From NCBI GenBank assembly GCA_032622095.1, contig CP136067.1, forward strand, positions 77,154,705 to 77,218,704: 64,000 bases of DNA, read 5' to 3'. Shown one piece after another: positions 1,182-64,000 of the stretch. The stretch's first letter is position 1. Each line of letters starts with the position of its first letter. Source of the DNA: Siphonodentalium dalli. Its lineage: Eukaryota > Mollusca > Scaphopoda > Gadilida > Siphonodentaliidae. The notes under the pieces are model-generated. The model searched no databases and was not told the origin of the DNA. It was given only the letters and a program-made list of their open reading frames with translations. Position numbers and translations under genes: made by a program.

Positions 1182-1478
1182 TCATCTAATATCAGTACAA
1201 TTATGGGGTGTCCAGGCAATGATCAAGACCAAAGGCTCAGTCCAGACCTAACTTACTGGATGAGTTTTGTAAATTTCGCTATAAACTGGAGACGAGTTGT
1301 GGATCCTATATTTGTTGTTAAGTGAATGTTATGACAATTTTTCGACTTTGAGGTTTGGGTTTTCTTGGTTTTCAGATGATTACTTCATACCGAATGGAAT
1401 GAATTTTGGTATCCAAGTTTGAAACCATAAATTGCAGGTCAAGTTCGATCTTCGGTTCTGTCCGCTCATTTTTACCAG
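1182..1478. other. Gene-free; degenerate dispersed-repeat sequence
   Basis: The stretch from about 1290 reads like a decayed copy of the dispersed family seen at 36332-36925. It has the same order of landmarks: a 'caagttcgatcttcgg'-type segment, a 'gtccg..catttttac' segment, then a 'gttatg..ttcgacttt' segment. It leads directly into the 2-kb tandem unit. No coding sequence was seen. Confidence 0.45.
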
Positions 1479-3490
1479 AGTGATGGACCTGTTTCGATAT
1501 TCGGGTTTTCTTATAGTTTCGTGTTGATATCTGCAGTTATACTTGGTTGATTACCCACCAAACGTTGTATCATTGCTGAATTGGCTCAAATACAAGCTAT
1601 TCTTGAAACGGGTATTTGTCAAATGATTCTCAGCAGACTTATTAGTAGCCTGTCATTTGTAATATGGGCCTTTCTAAAATATTTTATTGGTTTTCGGCTG
1701 ATAATTCCAAATTACGGAATCAGTCTGAATGCAATTTGAATCAAACCAATGGGCGTTTTATGCCACCGTGGTGGTGCTTTTGTTAGTAAATCAATCTGAC
1801 ATTGATACCCACGGGTACCCACGTACTATGCCAAAACCTGGAAACTTTTTGTGAAGTTTATAACATTGAAAAAAAAAACATGACAAGACAGCAACAGCCA
1901 ACCGATATCACACGACGTATAGGTGACTTTGTTGAGCCGATTTTGATTTGCATCGCTAACAATGATGGAATTTCTCCCTGGAAATAATTCAATGTTTATT
2001 GCGATCTCGATTAACAAATGTCACAAAAATCATGAAATCTCCAGCTGAGACCAAAATTATATAGGAACAAGTATTAAAAAATAAATAAATTACATGCGTT
2101 GTTTGTTCAACGTTATAAAGTTCCCCGTCAGAACAGGTCAGAACATCAAAAGGTTCCCAAGTTTTGAACTGGTAGAATATGATATATATACGGGCGTTGA
2201 TGTTTTGAACTGGTATAATATGATATCTATACGGGCGTTGATGTTTTGAACTGGTAGAATATGATATCTATACGGGCGTTGCAAGCGTAGATATTCATGA
2301 CACGATCTATCAATTTGGATGTAAAATTAGTGAAAATAACTACAATATTTTCTGTCCCCATTCAATCACCTGAGCGGGATGTACTGTATGACTTTAATTT
2401 AGTTATTCGTTGACTATATATTGTAAAGAGACTTGAATGTTTGAAGCCCATATTGCATTTTTTTTAGATATCGGCTCTATTTTGGTGATATAAATAGGTC
2501 GATAAATACGCCATGCAGTCGATGACTAAACACATTCTTATCAAATATTGAGTACCCCCATCTCTGAGCCAAACGGCACCAATTTTGTGTCTTTATGGCT
2601 AACGAATAGATTCCTCGTACATGTAGCTTGGATAAACATCAATTTGGTGGAAATCGGTGCTAAAAAATATATATTTGGCCTCGCCCCAACCCTGACTCAA
2701 TTGGCGCCACCTTTTGGCATCTTTAAGCCACATCATATAAACTAATGGAGATGATTATGTATAAGTTTGGTGGAAATCAGCGACAAGAACTCATTGTGTT
2801 GCCCTCCCCCTTTTTACCCTGACACCAACAGCGCCACTTTAGACCATTGAAACCCGTATATCTGTTAGACCCCTTTGGACCCACCTGGATGATGCCCCGT
2901 TAATTTCTATTGAATAAAGGCAGACAGGCAATATAGGCATATATATTGCCATACTACCAAATAACACTCTGGAAATTTAATACTTATACATAAAGGTGAT
3001 GAAGGGCCACGATGTCGAACAATTGTTCGCTAATAAGCGAGATCACTGAGTCGCTGCCGTATTGGATCAATCCAGCTCCGCTCCGTGATCAGGGACGTGG
3101 CTAGAGGGTTTCCGTTCGGGGGGTGTCCGCCTTGGGAAATTCCAACTGCACCCCCCCCCTGATTCAGAATCAGACCGAACACAAGTTTTGCATAATTCCA
3201 TTTGCACCTCAGTGCTTAGGCCTAATAGGCCTAATATCCTATATTTTCATAAACCATGGTTCTATATTCCCGGTATGAGAAGATTCAGATATTTTAACCT
3301 GAAACATTGCATAGATCCTAACATCTAGTGGTCTAACTCCATACAAATGCACACAGCTACGGGCAAGAAAGTGTCCACGACACACCGGGCTGACCATGGT
3401 TGTTCTGCCCGGTGTGAGAAAATTTTGAAATTTGAACAAGAAAATCGCAAATCCTAGCATCTAGACTGGCCTCAACTGAAGCTTTCCTAT
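1479..3490. repeat. 2-kb tandem unit, copy 1
   Basis: This unit starts AGTGATGGACCTGTTTCGAT and ends in CTTTCCTAT. It is followed immediately by a second copy at 3491, so the repeat period is 2012 bp. The copies differ only by scattered substitutions and small indels, which suggests a fairly recent duplication. Inside are a three-unit 41-bp minisatellite and, near 2550-2880, degenerate 100-130-bp subrepeats carrying 'ggcgccac' or 'ggcacc'. No convincing ORF is present. The unit resembles a non-autonomous mobile or satellite-forming element, but I found no terminal inverted repeats. Confidence 0.85.
2161..2281. repeat. 41-bp minisatellite, 3 units (copy 1)
   Basis: Units begin gttttgaactggta at 2161, 2202 and 2243 and end in acgggcgttg. 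The exact 41-bp spacing is visible directly. The same three-unit block sits at the equivalent place in the second 2-kb copy. Confidence 0.9.
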
Positions 3491-5513
3491 AGTGATGGAC
3501 CTGTTTCGATATTCGGGTTTTCTTATAGTTTCGTGTTGATATCTGCAGTTATACTTGGTTGATTACCCACCAAACGTTGTATCATTGCTGAATTGGCTCA
3601 AATACAAGCTATTCTTGAAACGGGTATTTGTCAAATGATTCTCAGCAGACTTATTAGTAGCCTGTCATTTGTAATATGGGCCTTTCTAAAATATTTTATT
3701 GGTTTTCGGCTGATAATTCCAAATTATGGAATCCGTCTGAATGCAATTTGAATCAAACCAATGGGCGTTTTATGCCACGTGGTGGTGCTTTTGTTAGTAA
3801 ATCAATCTGACATTGATACCCACGAGTACCCACGTACTATGCCAAAACCTGGAAACTTTTTGTGAAGTTTATAACATTGAAAAAAAAACATGACAAGACA
3901 GCAACAGCCAACCGATATCACACGACGTATAGGTGACTTTGTTGAGCCGATTTTGATTTGCATCGCTAACAATGATGGAATTTCTCCCGGGAAATAATTC
4001 AATGTTTATTGCGATCTCGATTAACAAATGTCACAAAAATCATGAAATCTCCAGCTGAGACCAAAATTATATAGGAACAAGTATTAAAAAATAAATAAAT
4101 TACATGCGTTGTTTGTTCAACGTTATAAAGTTCCCCGTCAGAACAGGTCAGAACATCAAAAGGTTCCCAAGTTTTGAACTGGTAGAATATGATATCTATA
4201 CGGGCGTTGATGTTTTGAACTGGTATAATATTATATCTATACGGGCGTTGATGTTTTGAACTGGTAGAATATGATATCTATACGGGCTTTGGAAGCGTAG
4301 ATATTCATGACACGATCTATCAATTTGGATGTAAAATTAGTGAAAATAACTACAATATTTTCTGTCCCCATTCAATCACCTGAGCGGGATGTACTGTATG
4401 ACTTTAATTTAGTTATTCGTTGACTATATATTGTAAAGAGACTTGACTGTTTGAAGCCCATATTGCATTTTTGTTTAGATATCGGCTCTATTTTGGTGAT
4501 CAAAATAGGTCGATAAATACGCCATGCAGTACGACGACTAAACACATTCTTATCAAATATTGAGTACCCCCCCATCTCTGAGCCAAACGGCACCAATTTT
4601 GTGTCTTTATGGCTAACGAATAGATTCCTCGTACATGTAGCTTGGATAAACATCAATTTGGTGGAAATCGGTGCTAAAATATTTTTGGCCTCTCCCCAAC
4701 CCTGACTCAAATGGCGCCACCTTTTGGCACATTTAAGCCACATCATATAAACTAATGGAGATGATTATGTATAAGTTTGGGGAAACCAGCGACAAGAACT
4801 CATTGTGTTGCCCTCCCCTTTTTTACCCTGACACCAACAGTGCCACTTTAGACCATTGAAACCCGTATCTCTGTTAGACCCATTTGGATCCACCTGGATG
4901 GTGCCCCGTTAATTTCTATTGAATAAAGGCAGACAGGCAATATAGGCATATATATTGCCATACTACCAAATAACACTCTGGGAATTTAATACTTATATAT
5001 ACATAAAGGTGATGAAGGGCCACGATGTCGAACAATTGTTCGCTAATAAGCGAGATTACTGAGTCGCGGCCGTGTTGGATTAATCCAGCTCCGCTCCGTG
5101 ATCAGGGACATGGCTAGAGGGTTTCCGTTCGGGGGTGTCCACCTTGGGAAATTTCAACTGCACCCCCCTTGATTCAGAATCAGACCGAACACAAGTTTTG
5201 CATAATTCCATTTGCACCCCCTTGCACCTCAGTGCTTAGGCCTAATAGACCTAATATCCTATATTTTCATAAACCATGGTTCTATATTCCCGGTATGAGA
5301 ACATTCAGATATTTTAACCTGAAACATTGCATAGATCCTAACATCTAGTGGTCTAACTCCATACAAATGCACACAGCTACGGGCAAGAAAGAGACCACGA
5401 CACACCGGGCTGACCATGGTTGTTCGGCCCGGTGTGAGAAAATTTTGAAATTTGAACAAGAAAATCGCAAATCCTAGCATCTAGACTGGCCTCAACTGAA
5501 GCTTTCCTATAGT
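3491..5513. repeat. 2-kb tandem unit, copy 2
   Basis: This copy is nearly identical to 1479-3490. Differences are small, for example 'gatataaatagg' in copy 1 against 'gatcaaaatagg' in copy 2 near the middle, and an extra 'tata' near 5000. A 124-codon minus-strand open frame at 4372-4746 exists only because of such indels. Its counterpart in copy 1 is interrupted, so I treat it as chance. After 5513 the sequence continues into a nested smaller duplication instead of a third full unit. Confidence 0.85.
4171..4291. repeat. 41-bp minisatellite, 3 units (copy 2)
   Basis: This is the counterpart of the 2161-2281 block inside the second 2-kb unit, again with three units at 41-bp spacing and a few substitutions. 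Confidence 0.9.
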
Positions 5514-5830
5514 GTTGGAAATTTCAGACCTCATACTCCCCCTCAGGTTGGAAAATTCTCCAACTGATGACCATTTCAGTCCACAAGTTTGACCAAATGT
5601 AGTAAAATATTTTTAAACTTATTAGCATTTTTGTATTGGCCACGGGGGAGAGACAATGACACACTGGGCCGACCATGGTTCGGGCCGGTGTGCGATTTTT
5701 TTTAATCTGAACAAGAAAATCGCAACATCCTCGCATCTAGACTAGCCTCAAGCATTCCTAGAGTTGGAAATTTCAAACATGGCACCCCACTTAGGTTGGA
5801 AAATTTACAACTGATGATTTTCAACCTATT
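5385..5830. repeat. Nested ~250-bp direct duplication at the end of the tandem array
   Basis: The last part of the 2-kb unit and the sequence just after it (about 5385-5575) reappear in diverged form at about 5637-5825. Shared landmarks in order are 'gacacac.gggc.gaccatggtt', 'gaacaagaaaatcgcaa', 'gcatctagact.gcctcaa' and 'gttggaaatttca'. The offset is about 250 bp and divergence is clearly higher than between the 2-kb copies, so this duplication is older or evolves faster. Confidence 0.7.
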
Positions 5831-14656: not shown

Positions 14657-16126
14657 GGCGTCAGACCGATTTTCCGAAGACCTATTACTACGAAGGCCCA
14701 CAACTCCGAAGGGCCGATTCTCCGACGGCCCATAACTCCGAAGATCCGATTCTCCGACGGCCCATAACTCCGAAGATCCGATTCTCCGAAAGCCCATAAC
14801 TCCGAAGGGCCGATTCTCCGAAAGCCCATAACTCCGAAGGGCCGATTTTCCGAAGACCTATAACTCCGAAGGTCTATAACTCCGAAGGTCCGATTCTCCG
14901 AAGGTCCATAACTCCGAAGGTCCATAACTCCGAAGGTCTATAGCTCCGAAGATCCGATTCTCCGAAGGTCTATAACTCCGAAGGTCCGATTCTCCGAAGG
15001 TCTATAACTCCGAAGGTCCGATTCTCCGAAGGTCCGATTCTCCGAAGGTCCGATTCTCCGAAGATTTTGTTTTATCGGGGTATTATCGTTTACTAAATAG
15101 TGTACAGTCCAGTGGCGAAGCCAAGTGGTCAAAAAATTCCTACTGCCCCTATTAAACCTCTACTGCTATTTCAGACAATATGGGCCCCTACCAAAACATG
15201 TCCAATGTCATGTAAACGCCCGGAAATCGTTCATGGGGCATCAAAATATTCAAACTTTTCCTACTGCCCCCACCTAAATGGGAATCCTGGCCCGCCACTG
15301 ACTATACACCAGATACTATAACGTTACGTTGGCCCATGATATGCCAGAGTAAAATGTACAGGGGTGAACGGGGAAGAACTTGTCGCCCCTGTGCATGTTA
15401 GGCTACTCTGACATTCTTGCAGCGTTTCGTTATAATATACCCGGTGCACACCAGTGGCGGAGCCAGGGTTCCCATTTAGGGGTGCACATTAATTAGCATA
15501 TGTGGGGGATATGTGGGGGATATATCATGCATATGATATGCCGAAAGCATATCACGAAGGCCTGATTTGGCGCATGCATGGGAGGGGTCGCCCCCAATTG
15601 TTGGTCCGGGGGCTCCCCTGTGCAGGAACACTGAATATTTGAATGCCTAGGAGGGATTTCCGGACGTTTACATGACACTTGACATGTTTTTTGGGGGCGG
15701 TCTTCCCTAGGGCCCCATTGACCCCGCCACTGGACTGTACACTATTTAATAAGCGATAAAACATGATCTTCGGATAATCGGTCCTTCGGAGAATCGGACC
15801 TTCGGAGAATCGGACCTTCGGAGTTATAGACCTTCGGAGAATCGGACCTTCGGAGTTATAGACCTTCGGAGTTATGGCCCTTCGGAGTTATAGACCTTCG
15901 GAGTTATGGGCGTTCGGAGTTATAGACCTTCGGAGTTATGGGCGTTCGGAGTTATAGGCCTTCGGAGAATCGGACCTTCGGAGAATCGGACCTTCGGAGT
16001 TATAGACCTTCGGAGAATCGGACCTTCGGAGTTATAGACCTTCGGAAAATCGGGCCTTCGGAGTTATGGATCTTCGGAGAATCGGACCTTCGGAGTTATG
16101 GGTCTTCGGAAAAACGCTACGTAACC
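14657..16126. mobile_element. Foldback-like element with long inverted arms made of short subrepeats
   Basis: The left part (about 14672-15064) is an array of 16-20-bp units built on CTCCGAAGGTC, alternating 'tataactccgaaggtc' and 'cgattctccgaaggtc' forms. The right part (about 15762-16110) is the same array in reverse complement (ccttcggagttatag, ccttcggagaatcgga). Inside both arrays the inverted repeat continues through 'ttttatcg...aatagtgtacagtcc' on the left (to 15110) and its complement on the right (from 15732). It is weaker beyond: both sides also encode a matching 'catgtaaacg.ccgga' segment. The flanking octamer ctccatac occurs at 14649-14656 and 16127-16134 and may be the target-site duplication. 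Outermost termini are only weakly inverted. No transposase is present, so any movement would need a partner. Open frames such as 'RRIGPSEL' repeats are artefacts of the array. Confidence 0.7.
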
Positions 16127-22098: not shown

Positions 22099-22899
22099 AT
22101 GACACTCCCAGATGCACGAATACGAATTGTACCGAGAATATTAATATCATTCCAGTTGATCGGAAACAATAGCTTGTTCACAGACTGTTTACCAAATATT
22201 GTGGATTTTCTCTCCCTATACGACCCACCGCCTAACACAGAAATCTACTCCACGAACACAACTCACTTTAAATCAAGTTTCCTCCCAACTATGATTGCTG
22301 AATGGAATGTATCGTGCAAAATAACAACTGATGCAAAAAAACTCACAGACCCCACATCAGAACCAACTAAGGACGAAATACTTGCTAATATGTATAATAA
22401 TTTACGCATAGAAGAGACATCAATAAGACCCCCTTCTTACTACAATGTCGGGCTGAGAACATCAAATATTTTGCAATGTAGGCTCCGAAACAACTGCAGC
22501 GATCTCAACTTCGATAAATTTAAAAATTACATATCCTCAAGCCCGTGTTGCTCCTGCGGTAACCAATGTGAAGACGCAAGCCATTTTTTCTTCGAATGTC
22601 CTTTCTACACAGAAGCAAGGAACCGTATGTGGACACGACTAGATGAGCATAAAGTGGTCATCACCAGTATATTAAAGATATTCTTTTTGGCATACCCGAA
22701 ATTAGCGACACCTGAACAGGCGATTATTCGAGACAGTACAATCATTCATCATTTTCACAGACCGATTTCAGTAATCATTATTCCATTGACTCCGCCCACT
22801 GCCACAGCCACAACTACAACCTACATGTGTTTGATTGGGAGCCGGTTCCCCTATGTATACATAGCCGATCACATGGGACACCGTCTCCCACACAAATAA
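22099..22899 (+). CDS. 5'-truncated non-LTR retrotransposon ORF, C-terminal part
   Basis: A single open frame of 266 codons directly follows a short (TA)n run. The protein lacks the reverse transcriptase core. It shows the post-RT region: SSFLPTMIAEWN at about residues 59-70, then a cysteine-rich zinc motif at about 150-167 (C150, C151, C153, H162, C167) within CCSCGNQCEDASHFFFEC. This arrangement is known from LINE ORF2 C-termini. The stretch after about residue 200 is low in motif and may be partly read-through of the 3' region. The frame is intact, unlike the copy at 6 kb, and the zinc tails differ, so two LINE lineages are present. The Met start is probably not a real start; the element is 5'-truncated. 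Confidence 0.8.
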   Translation: MTLPDARIRIVPRILISFQLIGNNSLFTDCLPNIVDFLSLYDPPPNTEIYSTNTTHFKSSFLPTMIAEWNVSCKITTDAKKLTDPTSEPTKDEILANMYNNLRIEETSIRPPSYYNVGLRTSNILQCRLRNNCSDLNFDKFKNYISSSPCCSCGNQCEDASHFFFECPFYTEARNRMWTRLDEHKVVITSILKIFFLAYPKLATPEQAIIRDSTIIHHFHRPISVIIIPLTPPTATATTTTYMCLIGSRFPYVYIADHMGHRLPHK

Positions 22900-33087: not shown

Positions 33088-33233
33088 GGAGATAAACGTA
33101 CCCTGTTTCGTTGTACATTCTGGGATTCGAGCATGAAAACAGTTTGTGAACGAGCCGGCTTGCCGGCTCGTTCACAAACTGTTTTCATGCTCGAATCCCA
33201 GAATGTACAATGAAACAGGGTACGTTTATCTCC
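33088..33233. repeat. 146-bp almost perfect palindrome with 2-nt loop
   Basis: Two 72-bp arms are separated by tt (33160-33161) and differ at one position (g on the left arm against the base expected from the right arm, near 33110). The left arm begins GGAGATAAACGTACCC and ends GAACGAGCCGGC. The sequence would extrude as a cruciform or fold as a 72-bp RNA hairpin. There is no clear target duplication outside the arms and no protein. Such perfection implies recent origin or ongoing arm homogenisation. Confidence 0.95.
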
Positions 33234-48338: not shown

Positions 48339-48476
48339 CTTCAACTCGTTATGTTGGGATATAAGATTTTATGAAACTAGTTTGATAAATTTGATTCACA
48401 ACTCTTCTACGACTCGTGAATCAGATTTATCAAACTCGTTTCATAAATTCTTATATCCCAACATAACTCGTTGGAG
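48339..48476. repeat. Inverted repeat, arms ~60 bp, loop 16 bp
   Basis: The left arm starts at 48339 and ends 'ttgattcac' at 48399. The right arm starts gtgaatcag at 48416 and ends at 48476. Shared core words are ACTCGTTATGTTGGGATATA and 'tttgataaat.tgattcac'. Only a few mismatches are present. It is unrelated in sequence to the hairpin 750 bp upstream but of very similar architecture. Confidence 0.85.
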
Positions 48477-49998: not shown

Positions 49999-50002
49999 TT
50001 AA

Positions 50003-50459
50003 CCCTTTACCCAACAAAACGACCAAAAACGCCCAAATAAAGCTTCAACAGCCTAAAATATCTTCGGTCTGTCTCAATAACACCATATAAATATGGATAT
50101 CATTGGAACCGGTTCATTGACCACACTGTGATGGTTACAGTTATGCCCTGTGCCAATGCATTCTCTTATATATGCGAGTCGACCATAGGTCGCCTCGCAT
50201 ATATAAGAGAATGCATTGGCCTAAACAAATTCTTTTTGAACACTTTTTACCATTTTTTCTTACCATTCTTTAACAATTTTATAATTTTTTCTTACATTTT
50301 TAAACATTTTTTATAATATTTTTCTACATTCTTTGACAATTTTATCATTTTTAATATGTGTTAAGCCAATGCATTCTCTTATATATGCGAGGCGACCTAC
50401 GGTCGACTCGCATATATAAGAGAATGCATTGGCACAGGGCCGTTATGTTGGGTAAAGGG
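50003..50459. mobile_element. TTAA-flanked (piggyBac-like) MITE containing a compound palindromic core
   Basis: The termini are CCCTTTACCCAACAAAACG on the left and the complement of CCCTTTACCCAACATAACG on the right. TTAA lies immediately outside each (49999-50002 and 50460-50463), the hallmark of piggyBac-type insertion. Inside, 50145-50440 is the palindromic core described separately. There is no transposase, so it would be non-autonomous. The right terminus plus flank is duplicated at once (50450-50480 repeated at 50481-50511). Confidence 0.75.
50145..50440. repeat. Compound palindromic core, copy A
   Basis: Two 69-bp palindromes (50152-50220 and 50365-50433) face each other as inverted copies, each next to a CCCTGT/ACAGGG end. 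Each palindrome has 33-bp arms with one mismatch and a 3-nt loop. The arm starts GCCAATGCATTCTCTTATAT and the centre reads cgacc-ata-ggtcg. The spacer is T-rich on the plus strand, with repeated 'tttttcttac' words. A flanking 'gttat' occurs on both sides (50140-50144 and 50442-50446). The same core is at 61.85-62.22 kb. Confidence 0.9.
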
Positions 50460-50511
50460 TTAACTGGCCTATGTGATGATGGGTAAAGGGTTAACTGGCC
50501 TATGTGATGAT
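50450..50511 (+). repeat. 31-bp tandem duplication spanning the right MITE end and its flank
   Basis: GGGTAAAGGGTTAACTGGCC plus 'tatgtgatgat' occurs at 50450 and again at 50481. Each copy carries the terminal GGGTAAAGGG followed by TTAA, so two potential right ends exist. Confidence 0.9.
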
Positions 50512-61610: not shown

Positions 61611-61788
61611 CATATAATTTGGTGGAAATGTTGTACAGATAATTCCAATATTCCACCAGAAGATATAATTATCCAGAATCAGAGACCGAGTTGGAAGCAG
61701 GCAAATATTTCAATCACTTCTCCAAAAACAGATTCCATTACAGGTATATGTTAACCCTGGCATGACTGGAGCTTCATGCAATTTGTAA

Positions 61789-62315
61789 CAATGCATTATC
61801 TTATATATGTGACCCGCCATATCAAATCCAGTCGGAAGTCGGGATTGTTTTTACCCTGTGCCAATGCATTCTCTTATATATGCGAGTCGACCATAGGTCG
61901 CCTCGCATATATAAGAGAATGCATTGGCCTAACAATTTTTTACAATTTTAATAATTTTTTCTTGTATTCTTTAACAATTTTATAATATCACCCATACAGA
62001 GCCCCAGTCAAACATGAGCAGACGACACTCTTCTATATGCTTCTATATATGTGTGGGGCTCCCTGCAGGGTAATGGATGTTTTTTTTATTTTATGTCCTA
62101 AAAATTGTCAGAAAAAATTATTTTAAAAAAATGATAAAAAATTGTTAGGCCAATGCATTCTCTTATATATGCGAGGCGACCTATGGTCGACTCGCATATA
62201 TAAGAGAATGCATTGGCACAGGGTAAAAAAATCACGACTTCCGACTGGATTTGATATGGCGGGTCACATATACGAGTCTCCCATATAATAGAATTGGCCT
62301 AACAATATTTACATT
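61789..62315. mobile_element. Compound palindromic element, copy B, inside a second inverted repeat
   Basis: The outer arms (about 61806-61853 and 62224-62273) pair over the words GTGACCCGCCATATCAAATC and 'cagtcggaagtcg' with few differences; weaker pairing extends outward. Between them, 61854-62223 is the palindromic core. Palindromes at 61860-61928 and 62149-62217 are exact reverse complements of each other, and the first is identical to 50152-50220 of copy A. The AT-rich spacer resembles that of copy A but contains an extra hairpin-like insert (about 61987-62080, with gagcccc/ggggctc). Confidence 0.85.
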
Positions 62316-62329
62316 GACCTTGTAAGCCA

Positions 62330-64000
62330 GTGGCATGTGTGAGCCCGGGGTAGAATATGTATACCGCCCATTAGGGGTAAGAATCCCCCAATGTGGCACC
62401 CTGTTTACCGTGGGGTGCATCCCGTGAGTTGTGGTGTAGGAGTCCTGGAGGTACTAGGACGGCCGTGTCATGTGAGGCATCAACCAGCGGATACGGCTTA
62501 TCTCATGGTCCTCTTTGGTCCTACATATCTTAAAGAAGGATGGTTTAGTTGACTCGGCTCAATCAATCGGCTGATCAGTGTTTCAGATTACATTTCTGCC
62601 ATCTATTATTATGCTTCTGATGTCTAGTTGTGTCTTCTGTTTTTCATGTATATTGTTTCTTTCGTGTCTTGCTGTTTACATGTCGTGTTCACGACTGTTA
62701 AATGTTTCAATCTTGTATTGTTCACGCACGTCTCATTGTGGCGAGGTACCGGCAGGCTGCTATATTCAGTGGCTAAACGGGTCAGCGCTTCAGCTATGTA
62801 CCAGTCTTTGGCCCGATCATAATTTGAAGAGTAGTCCGAGGCGGCTCATGGGCTAGCTGTCGATTATTTGCTTTTCATATGGCAACTCATAAACAAAAAC
62901 TCGACAAGTTACACTGATGCTGATGTCTACCCCAGTACTTGGTACTTGGTTTTGATCCAAATGTCAAGAGACCTTCTGGATTTGTGATTGACAAAACGAT
63001 ACAAAGCATAGCCTGACAATTAATAGTTGTCAAACCGATCAGGACTGGACCACTAAGTGGCTCTCTTCTGATCGAATGTTCAAGAAAACTTCAAGCTGAT
63101 GCTTTTGTGCAATTAACATCTATATTGCACAAACAGCAGTGTTGATTACCAAAACAATTGATGGACAAAAAAATGAGATAGATATCTTCTGACCTTCAAT
63201 CGGTGCGAGCATCTACCGACATTGAAGGTTGGGTATATGGATATGGATTTAAGCACATATGTTCCAAACCCAAAATGTCATGGGTATGGCCATGGCCAGG
63301 AACGTTGTAAAAGTACAGAAACCATATGTGCACGATGGTTTATTTCTGGTCATGACCATAAGGATTGTACGAATCTTAAGAAATTTTCTAGTTTCACATG
63401 CTGAAATGGATCGTTCATGTCCAATTTGGGACTATGAATTCAAGATACAACGATGAAAAGCTGAGAAGCATCTGTCATATATAGATGCTAAGAAAATATT
63501 GGTCCTCGATCATCCATTCCACAGGTCACATACTCAAAAATCGTGTCTACCAAAAAGTGTGTTGATGCCAGCACTCAGACACAGAGGTAAAACAAACTCG
63601 TCAGTATATTACTACATGTAGCAACACAAGTTGAGGAGACTGATACTATTCCTGTCCCAGAACCTTTAGCGCAGGTAATGGATACAGCTTCTGTCGTTGA
63701 GACATTTCCTCCGAAACAATCTATGCAAGTTGATCCTATTATTTTTTTTTTAAATCGCCAGTTGCTTCGAAACAAAGATCGCCAACGTCACTCAAACGAC
63801 TCTCAGAAAGAGAGGAACATCTTTGAGTGTTCAATATTTTACCACATGATTGACGAGGAACTCTTAACGTTCAAAGACAACATACAATATTTGTGGATCT
63901 AGGCTGTCGGTTGGGCGAAGGATGAATTCCTGCCTCACCCACCGACCGTCAGCTTGACGCATTGATAAAGGTTCATGCGCGATTCATCAAATATTATAAA
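62330..64000 (+). mobile_element. Non-LTR retrotransposon, 5' part, running off the right edge
   Basis: The start (about 62330-62580) reads like the 5' UTR of an invertebrate LINE: 'gtataccgcccattaggggt', 'accctgtttaccgtggggtg', 'tcccgtgagttgtggt', then 'ggcttatctcatggtcctct' and 'gactcggctcaatcaa'. A decayed ORF1 follows (62930-63890). The RT-encoding part would lie beyond 64000 if present. It lies directly downstream of the compound palindromic element. Confidence 0.6.
62930..63890 (+). pseudogene. Decayed LINE ORF1 with CCHC zinc knuckles
   Basis: Frames with interspersed stops and shifts encode, in order: an RNA-binding-like part (DPNVKRPSGFVIDKTIQSIA near 62955-63014, then GSLLIECSRKLQAD near 63059-63100); the linker LKVGYMDMDLSTYVPNPKCH (63219-63280); zinc-knuckle sequence GHGQERCKS and ETICARWFISGHDHKDCTN; and CPIWDYEFKIQ after 63420. 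This order matches ORF1 nucleic-acid-binding proteins of CR1/Jockey-type elements (PRE_C2HC-like plus CCHC knuckles). At least one expected cysteine is missing in the first knuckle (KCHGYGHG instead of a C-x2-C spacing). A Glu/Pro/Thr-rich C-terminal region follows (VATQVEETDTIPVPEPLAQV near 63610-63670). Nothing functional can be encoded. Confidence 0.75.

What the first reader, a model, noticed from the sequence alone, without database searches (positions are those of the whole stretch)
50145..50440. Two-palindrome cassette, copy A, with 69-bp cruciform-forming ends
A 69-bp near-perfect palindrome (33-bp arms, 3-nt loop) occurs twice in opposite orientation around a T-rich spacer. Each end of the element is therefore itself a hairpin, a nested inverted-repeat-of-inverted-repeat layout. 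It is not the usual MITE design, where only one long-range inverted repeat exists. The ends may be recognised as hairpins or may generate hairpin RNAs.
Basis: partly seen in the sequence, partly recalled or inferred. Interest (0 to 1): 0.7.

Follow-up and report, generated by a model that had tools for sequence, protein, structure and literature searches.

The report
Shared two-palindrome core of miniature transposons
A pair of DNA palindromes in an unnamed eukaryote is not an element of its own but the shared inner core of several high-copy, non-coding jumping elements that otherwise have different ends, which suggests that a structured piece of DNA can be passed from one family of mobile elements to another.

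Summary
Window 50146-50439 holds two 69-bp near-perfect palindromes (33-bp arms, 3-nt loop) in opposite orientation around a T-rich spacer, and 61854-62223 holds a second such pair. The reading as a hairpin-ended element is not: the palindromes are not the ends. Copies in the window's own 2.23-Gb genome show that copy A is the inside of a 465-bp TTAA element (49999-50463; TTAA at both ends in 24 of 30 loci). Copy B is the inside of a different 459-bp element (61809-62267) with unrelated 44-45-bp ends and a 4-bp duplication, ATAT on both sides in 24 of 28 distinct loci. An older TTAA family of about 263 bp (C) has the same layout with a short spacer, and window copy B sits inside a decayed C copy. 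A fourth TTAA family (D, four copies seen) carries half a core. So one palindromic core is shared by four miniature element families, one with a different target site. Coral CMITEs (TTAA elements with different ends and a shared interior) are the nearest precedent. Unusual here are the nested palindromes and the crossing of target-site type. How the core passes between families, and what it does, was not shown.

The parts
49999..50463 (.). Family A mobile unit: TTAA miniature element, TIR TTAACCCTTTACCCAACA
   Evidence: consensus of 30 loci, 464 bp; TTAA at both ends in 24 of 30 loci
49999..50024 (+). left terminal inverted repeat of A, TTAA included
   Evidence: inverted repeat I4 with 50438-50463
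50438..50463 (-). right terminal inverted repeat of A, TTAA included; overlaps the last 2 bp of the core
50146..50439 (.). two-palindrome core, copy A (CCCTGT...ACAGGG)
   Evidence: identity of A and B stops here on both sides
50152..50220 (+). left 69-bp palindrome of core A
50221..50364 (.). T-rich spacer with a roughly 32-bp internal repeat
50365..50433 (-). right 69-bp palindrome of core A
50138..50145 (+). CAGTTATG, possible left copy of an 8-bp duplication around core A (7 of 8 with the window's right copy, only 6 of 8 with the family consensus CCGTTCTG)
   Evidence: read by eye
50440..50447 (+). CCGTTATG, possible right copy of that duplication; part of the right TIR
   Evidence: read by eye
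61809..62267 (.). Family B mobile unit: 459-bp element, TIR GTGACCCGCCATATCAAATCCAGTCGGAAGTCG...
   Evidence: 30 loci, flanks differ outside these bounds
61805..61808 (+). ATAT target duplication, left
62268..62271 (+). ATAT target duplication, right
61809..61853 (+). left terminal inverted repeat of B
62224..62267 (-). right terminal inverted repeat of B
61854..62223 (.). two-palindrome core, copy B
61860..61928 (+). left palindrome of core B
62149..62217 (-). right palindrome of core B
61751..61808 (-). decayed, truncated copy of the older family C, first part (B is inserted in its palindrome)
   Evidence: joined flanks align to the family C consensus across the junction
62268..62336 (-). 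same decayed family C copy, second part

Best explanation
The cassette is the internal core of non-autonomous miniature DNA transposons (MITEs), not a transposon by itself. Copy A moves as a TTAA-target, piggyBac-type MITE and copy B as a MITE with other ends and a 4-bp ATAT target; their transposases, supplied in trans, act on the outer TIRs. The core is oldest, by divergence, in a TTAA family (C) in which two palindromes lie symmetrically just inside the TIRs, as subterminal palindromes do in piggyBac. A later version with a T-rich spacer was passed to families A, B and, as a half, D. I think the transfer happened by copying from an existing core during repair of transposon breaks (template switching), which long palindromes favour, and that the palindromes are kept because they help the element move or replicate. 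Shown: unit boundaries, target duplications, sharing between four families, different divergence, an empty-site alignment for B. Inferred: piggyBac as the mover of A, C and D, the order and mechanism of transfer, and the role of the palindromes.
For: A: 40 of 40 scored hits full length; the 39 besides the window copy are 97-98% identical; TTAA at both ends in 24 of 30 fetched loci. B: the 39 scored hits besides the window copy are 96-98% identical and end at query 486-493; 35 begin at 18-22 and four at 7-16, close to the GTGACCC ends and their ATAT; flanks ATAT/ATAT in 24, AAAT/AAAT in 1 and one base off in 3 of 28 distinct loci. 3 of 28 B insertions lie inside C copies and their joined flanks align across the junction. 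C: 40 of 40 scored hits span at least about 250 of 281 query bases; the 39 besides the query are 87-90% identical; 18 of 20 fetched loci show both ends, 14 of those 18 with exact TTAA on both sides. D: half-cores in L028, L065, L069, L072 and a pair of D-type ends without core in L061:180-310. piggyBac DDE domains: 128 match rows among 116 scored candidates, many in open frames of 500-720 aa. Weak support: upstream of the piggyBac domain L083 has TTAACCCTTT and L082 TTAACACGTTGAGTGCC, like D, but neither was shown to be an element end.
Against: No autonomous element with the A, B, C or D ends was found: 5 piggyBac copies were read with about 1 kb on each side; no TTAA-ended inverted pair was found in any, and none of the four TIRs in place. 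Nothing shows which transposase moves B. The same CCCTGT/ACAGGG boundary in A, B and (one side) D is more than random template switching predicts and would fit insertion of the core as a unit. D is known from four incidental copies only. No function of the palindromes was tested.
Confidence: 0.8

Rival explanations
1. The core is a transposon of its own with ends CCCTGT...ACAGGG that jumped into A-type and B-type MITEs and now rides in them.
For: Identity between A and B stops exactly at CCCTGT/ACAGGG on both sides. In A the flanks match 7 of 8 in the window (6 of 8 against the family consensus) as an 8-bp duplication would (by eye). The core also joins D sequence at ACAGGG. L012:2749-3087 has a core with other flanking sequence on its left.
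Against: B shows no duplication at that boundary, and its flanks there are inverted repeats of each other. Joined B arms without core: 40 of 40 scored hits match one arm only, none spans the join, so no core-less B was seen among them. D took only half a core, with the break inside the spacer. Of the 22 incidental pairs printed with 50-bp flanks, by eye 7 show A ends, 2 B, 9 C, 1 (L048) a C end on the right only, 1 (L065) is two elements side by side, 1 (L018) is disrupted, and 1 (L012) has other flanks.
Confidence: 0.15
2. Viral-type rolling-hairpin replication: the two ends are hairpin telomeres of a parvovirus-like replicon or its relic.
For: Inverted palindromic repeats at two sides of a short unit.
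Against: Palindromes are internal. Such replication would flip the palindromes; the T.C mismatch at pair 28 keeps one orientation in 52 of 53 (A), 54 of 54 (B) and 22 of 27 (C) palindromes of exactly 69 bp, and the flipped form appears in 0 of 134. The gaps between paired palindromes are 13 to 282 bp in the incidental pairs, too short for genes.
Confidence: 0.02
3. The core is kept because it is transcribed into a double-stranded hairpin RNA that feeds small-RNA pathways or escapes them.
For: The RNA fold is very stable, -150.7 kcal/mol, z -21.6, one long hairpin; palindromes diverge less than the spacer in family A, about 0.7% against 1.7% per base (loci chosen by a core query).
Against: No Rfam match in the window; no transcription data. 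Any palindromic element would fold so.
Confidence: 0.08

Closest known systems
CMITE elements of Acropora corals (PMC2872659; abstract and passages read)
   Same: TTAA miniature elements with different TIRs that share an internal region more conserved than the ends; piggyBac-type ends (CC[C/T]T); one new element created by insertion
   Different: CMITEs are about 100 bp with a 75-base interior; the word stem 'palindrom' does not occur in the text; their target is TTAA, whereas here the core also sits in an ATAT-target family
piggyBac and piggyBat ends (PMC11707139; passages read)
   Same: TTAA target; subterminal palindromic motifs; [quoted passage not shown]
   Different: palindromes here are 69 bp, in non-coding elements, and in A they lie at unequal distances (153 and 30 bp) from the ends
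Foldback-type elements such as Galileo and Tm1 (search listings only; the rest recalled)
   Same: long inverted repeats that fold back
   Different: in A the ends are short TIRs unlike the palindromes; the palindromes are internal
Double-hairpin elements of mitochondrial DNA (search listing only; the rest recalled)
   Same: two hairpins per unit
   Different: those are organellar and a few dozen bases long, by recollection; these are in contigs of 190-301 Mb (seven contig lengths seen)

Membership tests
piggyBac-type TTAA MITE (families A and C) | TTAA target duplication | tested here: met
   A: exact at both ends in 24 of 30 loci; C: in 14 of the 18 loci, of 20, with both ends found
piggyBac-type TTAA MITE (families A and C) | TIR beginning CC[C/T]T after TTAA | tested here: met
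   CCCTTTACCC and CCCTTTCATGAC in the consensus; rule taken from PMC2872659
piggyBac-type TTAA MITE (families A and C) | an autonomous piggyBac with the same ends in the genome | tested here: inconclusive
   piggyBac domains abundant; 5 copies read, none with A or C ends found
piggyBac-type TTAA MITE (family B) | TTAA target duplication | tested here: not met
   4-bp ATAT (once AAAT) duplication and GTGACCC ends
CMITE-like group | different TIRs with a shared interior more conserved than the ends | tested here: met
   left palindromes of window copies A and B are identical, right ones differ at one base; ends unrelated
CMITE-like group | TTAA target in all members | tested here: not met
   family B
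hairpin-telomere replicon | terminal palindromes found in both orientations | tested here: not met
   0 of 134 flipped; palindromes internal
foldback element | long terminal inverted repeats reaching the ends of the element | tested here: inconclusive
   not so in A, whose ends are short TIRs unlike the palindromes; in B the 44-45-bp TIR plus palindrome form one longer inverted repeat that does reach the ends

The most novel reading that the evidence does not exclude
The two-palindrome core is a transferable selfish module: a piece of structured DNA that raises the success of any miniature transposon that takes it up and has therefore spread through element families served by different transposases (TTAA and ATAT targets), a parasite of parasites with no ends or enzyme of its own.
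Probability: 0.3. Interest if true: 0.75.

Novelty: new variant of a known kind. Interest (0 to 1): 0.48.

Why it matters
MITE families are defined by their ends; interiors are thought to be free to vary. Here the interior is the conserved part and the ends change, even between target-site types. That gives a natural experiment on what internal DNA structure does for transposition, and on how new MITE families arise. The genome holds a more diverged (C) and two less diverged (A, B) stages, and a half-core stage (D) with a seemingly core-less counterpart, so the order of events can be worked out.

Tried and rejected
Rejected: B as an insertion of the core into the centre of a palindromic TA-target MITE. 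The B unit ends at GTGACCC with a 4-bp duplication (AAAT/AAAT in L032 speaks against a plain TA), and joined B arms found no core-less copy among 40 scored hits. Rejected: my first view of CAGTTATG/CCGTTATG as a clean 8-bp duplication in A; the family consensus on the right is CCGTTCTG, so the match is 6 of 8. Led nowhere: exact arm in viral contigs and genome contigs, 0 hits each, with the caveat that records of the window's own genome may be left out there; Rfam and tRNA, none; Pfam on 9 window ORFs of the 50 listed, one weak zf-RVT match below its cut-off; literature search for the TIR letters, one unrelated hit; a literature search on 4-bp duplications, two papers, not read. Never answered: the pattern search for the core in other contexts and the search with one palindrome alone. 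A search for core-less A copies was planned but not sent. The numbers of first-look candidates (2313 for A, 2025 for B, 6588 for C, 886 for joined B arms) are unscored and are not copy numbers.

Full report
What is there. The window holds, at 50146-50439, two 69-bp palindromes with 33-bp arms, a 3-nt loop and one mismatch each, in opposite orientation around a T-rich spacer; the same occurs at 61854-62223. Three first-order Markov random sequences made from the window gave no palindrome at the threshold used; the window gave 10, of which these are 4. A single palindrome folds as DNA at -36.1 kcal/mol (z -13.3); the whole core folds as RNA into one long hairpin in which the two palindromes pair with each other.

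The unit of copy A. The window lies in a 2.23-Gb genome of 9 contigs, so I take it for a eukaryote; its name is not given. A search with 296 bases of copy A returned 40 scored hits, all across both palindromes; the 39 besides the window copy are 97-98% identical. The 30 fetched loci nearly all share sequence beyond the cassette; L012 and L020 differ on the left. The consensus unit is 464 bp, TTAACCCTTTACCCAACA...TGTTGGGTAAAGGGTTAA. With three substitutions allowed within 180 bp of the cassette, TTAA stands at both ends in 24 of 30; of the other six, five lack a recognisable left end (two of these also have a changed right TTAA) and one has a changed right TTAA only. In the window this unit is 49999-50463. 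The cassette is internal: the left palindrome starts 153 bp in, the right one stops 30 bp from the end.

The unit of copy B. A search with 61784-62310 returned 40 scored hits; the 39 besides the window copy are 96-98% identical and end at query 486-493, while 35 begin at query 18-22 and four at 7-16. The unit is 459 bp in the window, 61809-62267, with ends GTGACCCGCCATATCAAATCC. Of 30 loci, two repeat another locus; in the 28 left the flanking four bases are ATAT/ATAT in 24, AAAT/AAAT in 1 and one base off in 3. Three of the 28 insertions (the window, L044, L053) lie inside copies of an older family, and the joined flanks align to it across the junction; in the window that older copy runs 61751-61808 and 62268-62336. 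So the same core sits in two elements with unrelated ends and different target duplications. A search with the two B arms joined, without core, gave 40 scored hits of 40 on one arm only: no core-less B was seen, within the limits of the best 40.

The older family C. Flanks of the first 60 loci held further relatives. A query from L021 gave 40 scored hits, each beginning within its first 12 bases and ending within its last 14; besides the query itself they are 87-90% identical. Of 20 fetched, 18 show both ends by a pattern allowing five errors, 14 of them with exact TTAA on both sides. The consensus is about 263 bp: TTAACCCTTTCATGACGGGAGCT, palindrome, about 27 bp, palindrome, AGCTCCAGTCATGGAAGGGTTAA. 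C is thus the more diverged form, with the palindromes symmetrically inside the TIRs. L048:2590-3055 combines a C-type end on its right side with the T-rich spacer, a possible link to A and B.

The half-core family D. In L028, L065, L069 and L072 a right palindrome with T-rich sequence before it abuts TATATGGGTTGATACAAAAATCGGACCTGGCACTCAAAGGGTTAA or a close variant, a third TTAA end; L061:180-310 holds a pair of such ends facing each other without core. D-type left ends also occur in L066 and L080 and were not followed. By eye, the join of core and D end falls at ACAGGG with a short match (GG).

Pairing. In the flanks of 80 loci (240 kb), places not chosen for pairing: 22 paired, 17 single, 8 within 450 bp of a locus edge, 2 repeats of a locus. 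Checked by hand: the single in L016 is an artefact (its partner was dropped as a duplicate), that in L053 has its partner in the masked zone, and in L065 the pair was drawn wrongly (a D half-core next to a C pair). That gives 23 paired and 15 single of 38. Several of the 15 are visibly truncated or disrupted. These flanks lie beside elements of the same kind and are no random sample of the genome.

Symmetry. In palindromes of exactly 69 bp from distinct loci (other lengths dropped), base pair 28 is a T.C mismatch with T outside in 52 of 53 (A), 54 of 54 (B) and 22 of 27 (C); the flipped form was seen in none of 134. This speaks against rolling-hairpin replication. Pairs 30 and 31 differ between C and A/B with both arms changed together, and pair 5 varies in C as G-C (13) or A-T (10) of 27. 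Arms therefore change together while the neighbouring mismatch stays; whether by selection or by short conversion tracts is open, and these are few events. Against strong upkeep in C, pairs 8 and 24 are intact in only 15 and 16 of 27. In family A the palindromes differ from consensus at about 0.7% of bases, the spacer at 1.7%; these loci were chosen by a core query.

Mechanism. Shown: unit boundaries, duplications, sharing of the core, different divergence. From papers: TTAA duplications and CC[C/T]T ends are those of piggyBac-type elements (PMC2872659, passages), and piggyBac carries identical 19-bp palindromes in both ends, bound by two C-terminal domains (PMC11707139, passages). The genome holds many piggyBac transposase domains (128 match rows, 116 scored candidates). 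Five copies were read with about 1 kb on each side: no TTAA-ended inverted pair was found, and none of the four TIRs in place; L083 has TTAACCCTTT and L082 TTAACACGTTGAGTGCC, like D, upstream of the domain, but neither is shown to be an end. Inferred: such transposases move A, C and D; another, unknown, moves B; the core was passed between families during break repair; and it is kept for a cis role. The rival, a core that jumps by itself, keeps some weight because the boundary is the same in A, B and on one side D, because of the 6-of-8 match at the A boundary and because of L012, whose core has other flanks on the left.

Known or new. The coral CMITEs are the nearest match: TTAA miniature elements with different TIRs and a shared interior (abstract and passages). 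Here the interior is a pair of long palindromes and also occurs in a family with another target. My searches for the TIR letters and for palindromic or core-sharing MITEs brought up no paper whose listing describes this family; two papers were opened in part, the others seen as listings. The library lacks most subscription papers and Repbase was not searchable.

Noticed in passing
33088-33233: A 146-bp near-perfect palindrome (72-nt arms, 2-nt loop, 1 mismatch), single, different in sequence and longer than the reported ones.
   Followed up: partly
48348-48467: Another palindrome of 120 bp (54-nt arms, 4 mismatches); it starts GTTATGTTGGGATATAAG.
   Followed up: no
14666-15063 and 15765-16116: Two minisatellite arrays of a 16-bp unit (ACTCCGAAGGTCCATA) in inverted orientation about 700 bp apart, arms up to 363 nt at 87%.
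   Followed up: no
1471-5519: A duplication of about 2 kb in tandem, 96.6% identical, containing 41-bp repeats.
   Followed up: no
50442-50503: The right end of element A with its TTAA is followed by a second, 94% identical 31-bp copy of the same stretch.
   Followed up: no
22099-22899: 266-aa ORF with a weak zf-RVT match (E 0.00028, below the Pfam cut-off), perhaps a retroelement remnant.
   Followed up: partly
61990-62070: The spacer of core B holds a stretch (ATACAGAGCCCC...GGGGCTCCCTGCAGGG) not seen in A; by eye part of it resembles a family C palindrome arm.
   Followed up: partly
L018:380-760 and L060:606-720: A different palindromic element (TACAGTAATGCCCTAAGTAATCGAC...) lies inside family C copies.
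   Followed up: no
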